Below, piece after piece: positions 7,741-44,682 of a stretch of DNA of 64,000 bases. Both the position numbers and the translations under genes were made by a program. The number at the start of each line of letters is the position of its first letter. Within the stretch, counting starts at the first letter, position 1. The stretch is from Myxococcaceae bacterium JPH2. GTDB taxonomy: Bacteria; Myxococcota; Myxococcia; Myxococcales; Myxococcaceae. The stretch lies in NCBI GenBank assembly GCA_016458225.1, contig JAEMGR010000021.1, positions 62,001-126,000 of the forward strand. Reading direction: 5' to 3'. The notes beneath the pieces are model-generated. The model was not told where the DNA came from, searched no databases, and saw only the letters and a program-made list of their open reading frames with translations.

Positions 7741-9261
7741 TCATGCGCTCCTCGGGGGGACCGGCTCCATGGGCGGGAAGACGCGCTGCTCGGGGGCGGA
7801 GGCGAAGCTCTGGAGCAGGAACTCGAACGTGCGGGCCCAGCCGCGCACGAGCGACGCGTCCAGGATGTCCCGGTCGTGGATGAGTTCGCCTCGCAGCGGT
7901 CCGTCGGGTTGCTCCTCCAAGGCCAGGGTGAGGTCGTGAAGCGTCGTGTCCGGCTCCAGGGGGAGCGGGGCGCCGCGCAGCGCGGCCAGTGTCGGCCGGG
8001 GTGTGGCGCCCTTGAAGACGAGCATCGCCTGGGGGGCGCGCAGGCCCAGGTCTTCGAGCGCGACGTCGGGATGGGCATACGCGTCCAGCGCCACGCGGCG
8101 CGCCTGCTCGAGCAGGTCCATGAAGCTGGGGTTGTTCTCGGGCCGCAGGCGCAGCGCCAGCGTGTTGACGAACGTGCCAATCAGCGGCGCGAAGTCCGGG
8201 TGCCCGCGGTGCGCCGCCGGCGTGCCGATGAGCAGGTCCCGCTGGCGACCCACGCGCGCCAGGAGCACGTAGTACGTGGTCAGCAGCACCATGAAGAGCG
8301 TGGCGCCGGCTCTGTGGCCCACCTCGCGCAGGCGTGCGACCAGCTCGGCCTCCACGAGGACCTCCACCGCGGAGGCCCGATAGGTGGGGTGCTCGGGGCG
8401 GGGCTGTGCGCCGGGGAGGGACAGGTCCTCAGGGGCGTGCTCAAGCTGCTGCCGCCAGTACGCGAGCTGACGGGAGAGTCCCTCGCCCTGGAGTTGCTGC
8501 CGCTGCCAGCGCGCGAAGTCGCCGTACTGGAGGCGCAGCGGACGCAGCGGCGAGGTGCGTCCCTCCACGAAGGCGGCGTAGAGGCTGGAGAGGTCGTGGA
8601 TGAGCAGGCTTCGCGAGGTGCCGTCCACCACGGCGTGGTGCATCAGCATGAGCAGCACGTGGCTGCGCGCGGCCAGCCTCAACAGCACGGCGCGGAACAG
8701 CGTGCCGTGCTCCAGGTCGACGCGGCGGCGGCGCTCCGAGTGGAGGTGGCGCTGCAGGGCGAGCTGCTGGGACTCGCCCGTCAGGTGGCTCAGGTCCAGC
8801 AACGAGAGGCGGGACGGTCCTGGCGGCGCGATGCGCTGCACGCACGTGTCTCCGCGCGCGGCCAGGCTCGTCCGGAGGACTTCGTGGCGCTCCACGAGCG
8901 CGGCCACGGCTCGGGCGAGCACGTCGAGATCCAACGGGCCCTCCAACCGCATGGCGAAGGCCGCCATGTGCGCGGGCCCCCGCTGCGGCTCGCGTTGCTC
9001 CGCGCGCCACAGCCGCTCCTGTGCGAAGGACAGGGGAGGCGGTCCCTCACGCGGAGGCACCTCCAGATGCGGAACGTCCGCGCCCGCTGGGGACTCCGGG
9101 CGCTGGAGCAGCTCCAGCAGGCGGGGCTTGTGCGTCATCAGCGCGAGGCGGAGGGTGGGGTCGACAGCGCCTTCCTTCGCGCGCACGCGCAGGTGGCCGG
9201 CCTCCGCCCAGAGTTGGACGTGGTGCTCGGCGAGGCGAGAGAGAAGTTGGTCCAGGTTCAT
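7741..9261 (-). CDS. Stand-alone condensation protein with TubC docking domain, last step of the NRPS/PKS line
   Basis: A 506-residue protein at the distal end of the operon. Residues 1-60 look like a TubC-type N-terminal docking domain (MNLDQLLSRLAEHHVQLWAE, then LRLALMTHKPRLLELL), which accepts the C-terminus of the preceding synthase. Residues about 75-490 form an NRPS condensation domain with LSFAQERLW and an intact catalytic motif HHAVVDG near 207, plus the later IGTFVNTLALR. No adenylation, carrier or thioesterase domain follows. Since this is the last gene and no thioesterase exists in the operon, it probably releases the polyketide acyl chain by amide or ester formation with a free or separately carried nucleophile. 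It overlaps the preceding PKS stop by 4 bp (ATGA). The acceptor is unknown. Confidence 0.88.
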   Translation of the reverse strand: MNLDQLLSRLAEHHVQLWAEAGHLRVRAKEGAVDPTLRLALMTHKPRLLELLQRPESPAGADVPHLEVPPREGPPPLSFAQERLWRAEQREPQRGPAHMAAFAMRLEGPLDLDVLARAVAALVERHEVLRTSLAARGDTCVQRIAPPGPSRLSLLDLSHLTGESQQLALQRHLHSERRRRVDLEHGTLFRAVLLRLAARSHVLLMLMHHAVVDGTSRSLLIHDLSSLYAAFVEGRTSPLRPLRLQYGDFARWQRQQLQGEGLSRQLAYWRQQLEHAPEDLSLPGAQPRPEHPTYRASAVEVLVEAELVARLREVGHRAGATLFMVLLTTYYVLLARVGRQRDLLIGTPAAHRGHPDFAPLIGTFVNTLALRLRPENNPSFMDLLEQARRVALDAYAHPDVALEDLGLRAPQAMLVFKGATPRPTLAALRGAPLPLEPDTTLHDLTLALEEQPDGPLRGELIHDRDILDASLVRGWARTFEFLLQSFASAPEQRVFPPMEPVPPRSA

Positions 9262-42936: not shown

Positions 42937-44682
42937 TCAGCCTCCGCCTTGGGCGAGCACCGCGTGAGAGGCATTCCCTTGCAGCTCCGCCAGCATCGAC
43001 GCGGGCACGGTGAAGTCGTCGAACCAGCGGCCTCCGAAGGGGCGGGGGAGGGGGACGATCTGGTCACTCGAATGCGACAGGACGCGCCGGTTGTACGCGC
43101 GGATGTCGTCGCGCAGCGGAGCGGGCAGCGCGCCATCTTGCGTGAGCGCGCGCTCCATCTCGCCGAGCAGCGTCTCCGTCTCGGAGATGGCGGACAGGAT
43201 TCCCTGGCACACGCCGCGGGGAAGCACCCCCGCCTGTCCCTTGGCATCCACGAGGCGAGCCACCGCGCCATAGGTGGCGTCCTGGAGCTGGCGTCGTGAC
43301 AGCCAGCGCGTCTCGTAGTTGAGCCGCCGATGCCAGAGCGGCTCCACCATGGCGCGCCGATGCTCCTCCAGCGTGCGGTGGAAGAGGCGATAGCCGTGGG
43401 GCTCGGGGTCCTCGAAGAAGCGCGAGCCCGGGTCGAGGAACGGCACCATGGGACACAGCAAGGGCAGCACGCGCCGGCCCGGGAAGCGCTCCAAGAGGCC
43501 GATGCAGTAGTCCACCGTGTCGGAGATGGACTGCGGTGTCTGCTGGGGCATCCCGATGAAGAACCAGACCAGGACGCCCGCGATGCCCGCGTCGAGCGCG
43601 CGCGGAATCCAGGCCTCCATCTGCTCCATCGTGTACGTCCCGCGCCCGGACAGCTTGCTGATGACCGGGTCGTGCGACTCGGGCGACAGCAGGATGTAGG
43701 TCTGGCTGGCCTGGCCCATCCGCCGCAGCGTGTCCTCGGGCGTCAGGTGGAACTGCTCGACGAAGAGCTGGCGATAGCCGGCCTCGCGCACCGCCTCGAG
43801 GTATGCGTGGAAGCGCGGGCGCGTCTCCGAGTAGCACTGGAGCGCGTAGATGCCGGTGCGCGCGGCGGCGGGGCCCAGGGTGCGCAGCTCGTCGACGACG
43901 CGTGGATGGCTTTTCGGAATCAGCGTCTTCTTGACGCCCATGACCTGCTGGAAGGCCGAGCGCGAGCCGCCGCACCAACCACAGTCATACGCGCACCCGG
44001 TGTTGGGCAGCGTCATGATGAGCCGCGTCGCGGCCACGTCGCCGGGAGCGTCCCGGTAGAAGCCCCAGTCCACCGTGGCGTCGTTGGAGTCGCGGGCGGG
44101 CTTGTGCGCGAAGCCCGTGCGCTCGACACGGCCCTGGCGCTTGAACAGGAGGTTGGGGATGCCCTCCAGGTTCCGCTCGCCGCGCTGGAGGCGCTCGACC
44201 AACTGCCGGGTGGGCTCCAGCGTGTCGTAGCCCTGCACCACGACATCGATGGCCGGGTACTGGATGAGCTGCTCCGCGTAGTACGTGGCGGAGATGCCCC
44301 CGCAGAGGATGACCGCCTCGGGGTGGGCTCGCTTGATGCGGCCCGCCAGCTCGATGGCGCCGTGGCAGTGCGCCAGCCAGTGCAGGTCCACGCCGAAGAC
44401 GGGCGCCTCCAGCCGCTCCAACAGGCGGTCCACGTCCAGCGCCGGGTGCTGGAGCATCAGCGCCGCCACGTTGACGATGTCCACCGCGAGGCCGTGCGCG
44501 CGCAGGTGCTCCTTCAGCGCGAGGAAGCCAATCGGATACATCTCGTAGATGGACGTGACGTTGACGCTGTCGGAGTCGCTCAGATAGGCGAACAGCACGT
44601 CGTCCCGCTCGCGGAAATCATAGACACTCGGCGCGTGCAGCAGGAACAGGTCTGCTCGCAATGTGCTGAGTGGCTCGCTCAT
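42937..44682 (-). CDS. B12-binding-domain radical SAM protein, first gene of the operon
   Basis: A 581-residue protein. Residues about 10-170 fit a cobalamin-binding Rossmann domain (AHPEAVILCGGISATYYAEQ is the family's GG-x-xAT region). The radical SAM core begins at about 220 with a CxxxCxxC cluster, Cys230, Cys234 and Cys237 (TGCAYDCGWCGGS), which binds the [4Fe-4S] cluster. A C-terminal ~180-residue extension follows. Class B enzymes of this type methylate unactivated carbon or phosphorus, though a few catalyse ring contraction or other radical chemistry. As the first gene of the operon it probably tailors the pathway product or a building block; the target is unknown. The ribosome site is weak (GGAA eight bases upstream). 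Confidence 0.87.
   Translation of the reverse strand: MSEPLSTLRADLFLLHAPSVYDFRERDDVLFAYLSDSDSVNVTSIYEMYPIGFLALKEHLRAHGLAVDIVNVAALMLQHPALDVDRLLERLEAPVFGVDLHWLAHCHGAIELAGRIKRAHPEAVILCGGISATYYAEQLIQYPAIDVVVQGYDTLEPTRQLVERLQRGERNLEGIPNLLFKRQGRVERTGFAHKPARDSNDATVDWGFYRDAPGDVAATRLIMTLPNTGCAYDCGWCGGSRSAFQQVMGVKKTLIPKSHPRVVDELRTLGPAAARTGIYALQCYSETRPRFHAYLEAVREAGYRQLFVEQFHLTPEDTLRRMGQASQTYILLSPESHDPVISKLSGRGTYTMEQMEAWIPRALDAGIAGVLVWFFIGMPQQTPQSISDTVDYCIGLLERFPGRRVLPLLCPMVPFLDPGSRFFEDPEPHGYRLFHRTLEEHRRAMVEPLWHRRLNYETRWLSRRQLQDATYGAVARLVDAKGQAGVLPRGVCQGILSAISETETLLGEMERALTQDGALPAPLRDDIRAYNRRVLSHSSDQIVPLPRPFGGRWFDDFTVPASMLAELQGNASHAVLAQGGG

What the first reader, a model, noticed from the sequence alone, without database searches (positions are those of the whole stretch)
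7741..44682. Eleven-gene operon predicted to build a pyrrole-azoline-polyene with an unusual release step
Seen: an unbroken minus-strand run with gaps no larger than 81 bp holding radical SAM, dehydrogenase, Pro adenylation, carrier, C-carrier, MDR reductase, Cy-A-PCP-PKS, three more PKS modules and a lone C domain. Known: proline adenylation plus free carrier plus acyl-CoA-dehydrogenase-like enzyme makes pyrrolyl-carrier; Cy domains make azolines; DH-KR modules make double bonds. Inferred: pyrrole-azoline-tetraenoyl chain with methyl branches from modules 2 and 4, handed to an unknown nucleophile. It resembles the DKxanthene plan (pyrrole-oxazole polyene joined to asparagine) but lacks a terminal A-PCP and adds a B12-type radical SAM gene, so a different product is likely.
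Basis: partly seen in the sequence, partly recalled or inferred. Interest (0 to 1): 0.9.

Follow-up and report, generated by a model that had tools for sequence, protein, structure and literature searches.

The report
Divergent leupyrrin-type pyrrole polyketide cluster
This stretch of a predatory soil bacterium's genome is an eleven-gene factory that probably starts a chain from proline turned into a pyrrole ring, extends it with polyketide modules and lets a stand-alone joining enzyme hand the chain to an unknown partner; it is a distant relative of the antifungal leupyrrin pathway with an added B12-dependent radical enzyme and no known product.

Summary
In detail: eleven minus-strand genes at 7741-44682, gaps at most 81 bp. 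The same order occurs in Citreicoccus inhibens and Myxococcus qinghaiensis, and as far as the contig reaches in M. llanfair..., with all genes under purifying selection. The start is a proline-to-pyrrole carrier pathway (code DLLYLALVCK; PigA/RedW-like dehydrogenase). The "MDR reductase" is a divergent enoyl-CoA carboxylase/reductase (ECR): CO2-pocket residues kept in 39/39 homologs, ECR fold. The lone C domain carries a beta-hairpin docking domain and the last PKS module ends in a matching tail, so it probably releases the chain as enacyloxin's C domain does. DKxanthene is not the closest relative; a DKxanthene-type cluster lies elsewhere in this genome. The best match is the leupyrrin-type cluster of Enhygromyxa salina: same core order, but C-PCP-TE and tailoring genes at its end. 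The window lacks these and adds a B12 radical SAM found only in the four genomes with this cluster. The tetraene prediction is weaker than stated: KRs of both methylating modules have His for the catalytic Tyr. The adenylation-less C-PCP is unexplained; four Myxococcus genomes keep only dehydrogenase, Pro-A, carrier, C-PCP and ECR, with the C active site lost. New variant of a known kind.

The parts
42937..44682 (-). B12-binding/radical SAM enzyme, 581 aa, CxxxCxxC (CAYDCGWC); TIGR04190-like
   Evidence: Pfam and NCBIfam TIGR04190 380 bits, below the 500-bit cut-off; 77-78% identical in the two Myxococcus clusters; strong hits in 4 of 145 order genomes, all four with the cluster
41788..42933 (-). 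prolyl-carrier dehydrogenase (PigA/RedW-like), 381 aa
   Evidence: NCBIfam PigA 403 bits, RedW 390 bits, below cut-offs
40206..41768 (-). stand-alone L-proline adenylation enzyme, code DLLYLALVCK
   Evidence: stand-alone Pro consensus L(L/F)YLALVC (PMC3874040)
39825..40124 (-). free carrier protein, 99 aa (GVIDSM); no SLiM-like tail
38017..39831 (-). adenylation-less C-PCP protein, 604 aa (HHIIYDG, LALDSL); ATGCTGA overlap with the carrier gene
38020..38034 (-). C-terminal tail EFVTL (window: F-V-T-L preceded by R-E) of C-PCP, putative SLiM docking to the hybrid synthase
   Evidence: REFVTL / RELLTL conserved in full clusters
36815..37978 (-). divergent enoyl-CoA carboxylase/reductase ('MDR'), 387 aa; N50, Y117, E118, H328 match the CO2-pocket residues
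27993..36824 (-). hybrid synthase betaHD-Cy-A-PCP-KS-AT-DH-KR-ACP; A code DMFNFGVLWK; AT motif RAAH
36648..36797 (-). TubC_N (beta-hairpin docking) domain of the hybrid synthase
   Evidence: PF18563 56.9 bits
21388..27993 (-). PKS module 2: KS-AT(HAFH)-DH-MT-KR-ACP; KR has His for the catalytic Tyr (GQANHTAAN)
15824..21379 (-). PKS module 3: KS-AT(HAFH)-DH-KR-ACP; DH motif HxxxD
9258..15827 (-). PKS module 4: KS-AT(NAFH)-DH-MT-KR-ACP; KR GQANHSAAN
9261..9275 (-). C-terminal tail TELTL of PKS module 4, putative SLiM docking to the lone C
   Evidence: TTELTL / ITELTL / MSELTL in three species
7741..9261 (-). lone condensation protein betaHD-C, HHAVVDG intact; proposed chain-release enzyme
9103..9252 (-). 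TubC_N (beta-hairpin docking) domain of the lone C
   Evidence: PF18563 43.8 bits

Best explanation
A divergent leupyrrin-type PKS-NRPS assembly line. (1) ProA loads L-proline on the free carrier, and the PigA/RedW-like dehydrogenase makes pyrrole-2-carboxyl-carrier (strong inference from families and code). (2) The pyrrolyl unit reaches the hybrid synthase through the A-less C-PCP protein, whose C-terminal tail docks on the hybrid's beta-hairpin domain; C-PCP probably works as a docking relay rather than adding a residue (inferred, weak). (3) Cy-A-PCP adds a Cys/Ser/Thr-type residue as an azoline (ring inferred from the Cy domain; amino acid unresolved). (4) Four PKS modules extend the chain, with C-methyl branches from modules 2 and 4; a double bond is expected from module 1 and probably module 3, and is uncertain in modules 2 and 4. 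(5) The ECR makes an alkylmalonyl thioester or acts on an enoyl intermediate (enzyme class well supported, site of use unknown). (6) The last ACP docks through its ELTL tail to the beta-hairpin domain of the lone C, which joins the chain to a free amine or alcohol, in place of the C-PCP-TE release of the Enhygromyxa relative (inferred). (7) The B12 radical SAM modifies the product, probably by C-methylation (inferred).
For: Domains and code. Conserved order in further species and purifying selection. Enhygromyxa salina SWB007 has starter genes, C-PCP, ECR, hybrid, three PKS and betaHD-C-PCP-TE in the same core order; a published analysis reports a leupyrrin BGC in that strain (PMC6226438), and antiSMASH's best hit for region 1.1 on scaffold 1 of C. 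inhibens M34, the scaffold that holds this cluster, is leupyrrin at 20% (PMC8538283). ECR: CO2-pocket residues N, Y/F, E/D, H in 39 of 39 homologs, matching KsCcr (PMC10966969); the 17 best PDB fold matches are all ECR/CCR; relatives sit in lyase - acyl-CoA dehydrogenase - mutase operons. Docking tails and opposite charge patterns of the two betaHDs, with the known betaHD/SLiM rule (PMC9113145).
Against: Identity to the Enhygromyxa cluster is modest (C-PCP 29%, lone C 30%, ProA 40%, HYB 44%, ECR 52%), and that its locus is the published leupyrrin BGC is my inference. The leupyrrin BGC itself could not be compared. The window lacks, next to the operon, leupyrrin's tailoring functions (O-methyltransferase, oxidase) and a TE. 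No AT here has the VAGH motif seen in the thuggacin-like clusters that carry the same ECR, so the ECR has no obvious consumer. Radical SAM function is untested and its AlphaFold model is poor (pLDDT 52.6).
Confidence: 0.7

Rival explanations
1. A DKxanthene variant: pyrrole-oxazole polyene amide of the DKxanthene family.
For: Hybrid synthase 48% identical to that of the DKxanthene-type cluster; shared ProA/PigA starter and reducing PKS modules.
Against: A separate DKxanthene-type cluster with its own ProA/PigA lies on contig C33 of the same genome; C. inhibens has DKxanthene at 82% on another scaffold (PMC8538283). No ECR or radical SAM match occurs there, and the C-A-PCP that follows its PKS modules is missing here.
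Confidence: 0.07
2. The C-PCP really extends the chain: ProA also loads its PCP with proline (or an unlinked A domain loads it), giving a pyrrolyl-amino acyl-azoline chain.
For: In the full clusters the C motif HHIIYDG and PCP motif LALDSL are intact, dN/dS 0.08; its PDB relatives are ordinary condensation domains.
Against: No A domain for it; C active site lost in four Myxococcus cassettes (HRIICDD) and altered in Enhygromyxa (HHIAHDR); in leupyrrins the pyrrole and oxazoline appear to be joined directly (my reading of the synthesis described in PMC8360190).
Confidence: 0.3
3. The ECR acts only as a trans enoyl reductase, or supplies an extender to another pathway.
For: ATs here look malonyl-type (HAFH/NAFH) or undetermined (RAAH, also in the DKxanthene-type hybrid, where no ECR was found).
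Against: All four CO2-pocket residues are kept; the ECR gene sits between C-PCP and hybrid in the full clusters and in Enhygromyxa.
Confidence: 0.3
4. The operon is a silent or decaying locus.
For: Four Myxococcus genomes lack about 30 kb of it.
Against: All eleven genes are intact in the window and C. inhibens, dN/dS 0.06-0.20.
Confidence: 0.05

Closest known systems
Leupyrrin BGC (Sorangium cellulosum So ce690, BGC0000380) and its reported counterpart in Enhygromyxa salina SWB007
   Same: Pro-A, PigA-like dehydrogenase, carrier, C-PCP, ECR, Cy-A-PCP-PKS hybrid, three PKS genes and a betaHD-C terminal protein, in the same core order in Enhygromyxa; identical hybrid A code DMFNFGVLWK.
   Different: Enhygromyxa ends in C-PCP-TE, has P450, methyltransferase, Rieske and PPTase genes, divergently transcribed starter genes, no MT in PKS4 and no radical SAM; identities 29-59%.
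DKxanthene BGC
   Same: Pyrrole starter, Cy-A-PCP-PKS hybrid (48%), reducing PKS modules.
   Different: Separate cluster in the same genome; no ECR or radical SAM match; has a C-A-PCP after PKS modules.
Enacyloxin Bamb_5915 (betaHD-C chain-release enzyme)
   Same: Free-standing betaHD-C protein served by a carrier with a C-terminal SLiM (PMC9113145). The only PDB chains aligned from residue 2 of the lone C are EpoB and 6cgo; 6cgo is Bamb_5915 as far as I remember, not confirmed here.
   Different: Nucleophile unknown here.
Enoyl-CoA carboxylase/reductases (KsCcr, CinF, AntE; Leu10/TgaD)
   Same: Fold and CO2-pocket residues.
   Different: Only 17-21% identical in the structural alignment; 45 bits against the curated CCR model (cut-off 378.6): a divergent subfamily.

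Membership tests
Leupyrrin-type cluster | Pyrrole-2-carboxyl starter genes (Pro-A, carrier, dehydrogenase) | tested here: met
Leupyrrin-type cluster | C-PCP, ECR, Cy-A-PCP-PKS hybrid, three PKS and betaHD-C in that order, as in Enhygromyxa | tested here: met
Leupyrrin-type cluster | Terminal PCP-TE, as in Enhygromyxa (presumed macrodiolide closure) | tested here: not met
   lone C of 506 aa ends after the C domain against betaHD-C-PCP-TE of 912 aa
Leupyrrin-type cluster | O-methyltransferase and oxidase for the dihydrofuran (Leu14, Leu8; PMC4979870) | tested here: inconclusive
   none in or directly beside the operon; the rest of the genome was not searched for them
Leupyrrin-type cluster | Direct sequence comparison with BGC0000380 | not testable with these tools
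   record not held
DKxanthene cluster | NRPS module (C-A-PCP, asparagine) after the PKS modules | tested here: not met
Enoyl-CoA carboxylase/reductase | Four CO2-binding residues N81, F170, E171, H365 (KsCcr) | tested here: met
   N50, Y117, E118, H328; mostly Y for F and D for E in the homologs
Enoyl-CoA carboxylase/reductase | ECR fold nearest among solved structures | tested here: met
   ranks 1-17
Enoyl-CoA carboxylase/reductase | Curated CCR model cut-off (TIGR01751) | tested here: not met
   44.8 of 378.6 bits
betaHD-C chain-release enzyme | N-terminal betaHD plus intact C active site, with a SLiM-like tail on the last carrier protein | tested here: met
betaHD-C chain-release enzyme | Release onto a free nucleophile | not testable with these tools
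   needs an in vitro assay
TIGR04190 B12 radical SAM | Score above the curated cut-off | tested here: not met
   380 of 500 bits

The most novel reading that the evidence does not exclude
The five genes dehydrogenase, Pro-A, carrier, C-PCP and ECR form a mini-pathway of their own, in which pyrrolyl-carrier chemistry and reductive carboxylation are coupled on a catalytically silent C-PCP. It survives alone under purifying selection after loss of the PKS in four Myxococcus species and makes a small molecule or building block of an undescribed kind.
Probability: 0.2. Interest if true: 0.7.

Novelty: new variant of a known kind. Interest (0 to 1): 0.45.

Why it matters
It shows leupyrrin-type chemistry in Myxococcaceae with a changed ending: the thioesterase terminus of the Enhygromyxa relative is replaced by a stand-alone, dockable C domain, and a B12 radical SAM is added. 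The relatives give a natural test set for three open points: what an A-less C-PCP protein does, what a divergent carboxylase/reductase feeds, and which nucleophile a lone C domain uses. Leupyrrins are potent antifungals (PMC8360190), so the product is worth looking for.

Tried and rejected
Radical SAM structure: AlphaFold on four sequences gave pLDDT 52.6, so no fold search was made; no PDB sequence relative. My first C-PCP query was translated in a wrong frame; its C-PCP identities there are void and are replaced. The four orphan cassettes first looked like evidence for an independent starter unit; synteny showed them to lie at the same locus with the rest deleted, yet dN/dS stays low, so 'pseudogene' was rejected too. 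AT motif RAAH as a sign of an unusual extender was rejected, because the DKxanthene-type hybrid without an ECR has it as well. Amino acid of the hybrid A domain: the code resembles Cys codes (from memory) but is identical to the Enhygromyxa (leupyrrin-type, oxazoline expected) code; left open.
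Full report
Observation. Eleven minus-strand genes occupy 7741-44682. From the 5' end: B12-binding radical SAM, PigA/RedW-like dehydrogenase, stand-alone A enzyme, free carrier, C-PCP, CCR-like MDR protein, TubC_N-Cy-A-PCP-KS-AT-DH-KR-ACP, KS-AT-DH-MT-KR-ACP, KS-AT-DH-KR-ACP, KS-AT-DH-MT-KR-ACP and TubC_N-C. 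The largest gap is 81 bp, and most junctions overlap or nearly touch.

The unit is real. The window is contig C21 of a 9.0-Mb genome in the genus of Citreicoccus inhibens. The same eleven genes in the same order occur in C. inhibens M34 (89-98% protein identity) and Myxococcus qinghaiensis (60-79%); in M. llanfair... strain AM401 the order holds until the contig ends inside the hybrid gene. dN/dS between the window and C. inhibens is 0.06-0.20 for all eleven genes. Flanking genes are shared only with C. inhibens. M. qinghaiensis has a twelfth gene, a Rieske oxygenase overlapping the end of the lone C gene.

Starter. The A enzyme has the code DLLYLALVC(K) (read by eye from the sequence printed, the final Lys assumed), the consensus of stand-alone proline enzymes in pyrrole pathways (L(L/F)YLALVC, PMC3874040), and its best stand-alone PDB relative is an L-proline:prolyl-carrier ligase. 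The dehydrogenase scores 403 bits against PigA and 390 against RedW (cut-offs 500 and 650). A pyrrole-2-carboxyl carrier is therefore well supported.

The reductase. The MDR protein is a divergent enoyl-CoA carboxylase/reductase. It reaches only 45 bits against the curated CCR model, but a profile of 13 homologs finds CCRs first in the PDB, its model matches ECR/CCR structures in the first 17 ranks, and the four residues that bind CO2 in KsCcr (N81, F170, E171, H365; PMC10966969) correspond to N50, Y117, E118 and H328, kept as N, Y or F, E or D, H in 39 of 39 homologs. Relatives at 50-55% identity in environmental genomes lie beside an HpcH/HpaI-type lyase, an acyl-CoA dehydrogenase and a B12-dependent mutase, with MeaB as well in one of them, which is the ethylmalonyl-CoA pathway gene set. 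In the tree the window's clade joins the Enhygromyxa protein (98/96), near thuggacin-like and environmental sequences (the Enhygromyxa branch is long). PMC6226438 reports an E. salina SWB007 protein 61% identical to Leu10 and 51% to TgaD; that genome has no protein at CCR cut-off level, so the protein is probably this one, but I could not confirm it.

Closest relative. Enhygromyxa salina SWB007 has ProA, PigA and carrier genes, and next to them C-PCP, ECR, hybrid synthase, PKS2 (with MT), PKS3, PKS4 (without MT) and a betaHD-C-PCP-TE protein in that order, followed by P450, methyltransferase, Rieske and PPTase genes. A published study of that strain reports a PKS/NRPS cluster as a leupyrrin BGC, and antiSMASH's best hit for region 1.1 on scaffold 1 of C. 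inhibens is leupyrrin at 20% (PMC8538283). By contrast a DKxanthene-type cluster with its own ProA/PigA lies on contig C33 of the window's genome (the name rests on PMC8538283, which lists DKxanthene at 82% on another scaffold of C. inhibens). So the window holds a divergent leupyrrin-type core, not a DKxanthene variant. It lacks the PCP-TE, and no O-methyltransferase or oxidase of the leupyrrin kind lies beside it.

Release. Two proteins carry N-terminal beta-hairpin docking domains: the hybrid synthase and the lone C. Two proteins carry short C-terminal tails of the SLiM kind: C-PCP (REFVTL, RELLTL) and PKS4 (TTELTL, MSELTL). In the window the hybrid's hairpin is acidic (LAIDAP) and the lone C's is basic (LRVRAK), while the C-PCP tail carries Arg and the PKS4 tail only Glu, so the pairs C-PCP to hybrid and PKS4 to lone C are complementary. 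This follows the salt-bridge rule for such pairs (PMC9113145) and the enacyloxin precedent of a free-standing betaHD-C enzyme. The lone C keeps HHxxxDG. The charge reading is mine and untested. The nucleophile is unknown.

Chain. Modules 2 and 4 should add methyl groups (MT domains with intact SAM motifs). Their KRs, however, have His where the catalytic Tyr is expected: for module 2 this holds in the window, C. inhibens, M. qinghaiensis and Enhygromyxa, and among 42 KR motifs collected from the fetched loci only these had it (the pattern missed module 4); module 4 shows the same in the window and M. qinghaiensis. The module-3 DH has HxxxD. A full tetraene is therefore uncertain; ketones at two positions are possible.

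The C-PCP puzzle. This protein has no adenylation partner. Four Myxococcus genomes (G101, G110, G112, G113) keep only dehydrogenase, ProA, carrier, C-PCP and ECR. Synteny with M. qinghaiensis shows the same junction in all four: the 30 kb from hybrid synthase to Rieske gene is missing, as is the radical SAM gene. In all four the C motif is HRIICDD instead of HHIIYDG, while the PCP motif is intact; the cassette still evolves under purifying selection (dN/dS 0.13-0.20 for four genes, 0.43 for the short carrier; G112 against G101). The Enhygromyxa C motif is also altered (HHIAHDR). A relay role for the carrier, rather than chain extension, fits best, but in the full clusters the C domain looks active, so this remains open.

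Radical SAM. Among 145 genomes of the order, strong matches occur only in the four genomes with the cluster, and none in the E. salina genome; it is thus a specific addition, probably a C-methylating or rearranging enzyme. Its target is unknown, and structure prediction failed.

Verdict. Observation confirmed; interpretation partly supported; a new variant of a known kind (leupyrrin-type), product unknown.

Noticed in passing
G101, G110, G112, G113 (loci L040, L041, L043, L044, L138, L140): Five-gene remnant PigA-ProA-carrier-C-PCP-ECR next to an SRP54 (ffh) gene, with an inactivated C domain but purifying selection; all share one deletion junction relative to M. qinghaiensis.
   Followed up: yes
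L055, L059, L062 (environmental genomes): Divergent CCR-like proteins in ethylmalonyl-CoA-pathway operons (lyase, acyl-CoA dehydrogenase, mutase, MeaB).
   Followed up: partly
L117, L118 (G000:C33:1-40000): DKxanthene-type cluster of the window's genome, close to a contig end.
   Followed up: partly
L046-L051 (G120:C2 about 400000-446000; G077:C11): Thuggacin-like PKS cluster (my label) with the same kind of ECR and one AT with motif VAGH.
   Followed up: no
L070, L071, L072, L076, L083: The same ECR family next to C or C-A proteins in Legionella longbeachae, Photorhabdus and two actinomycetes; function unknown.
   Followed up: no
window 6101-7710: Isochorismatase-family hydrolase and divergent LysR regulator just downstream of the operon, conserved in C. 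inhibens only.
   Followed up: no
L123 (G149:C320), L124 (G150:C27): Distant TIGR04190-like B12 radical SAM genes (30-32%) in another family of the phylum; no match to the window's other cluster genes nearby.
   Followed up: partly
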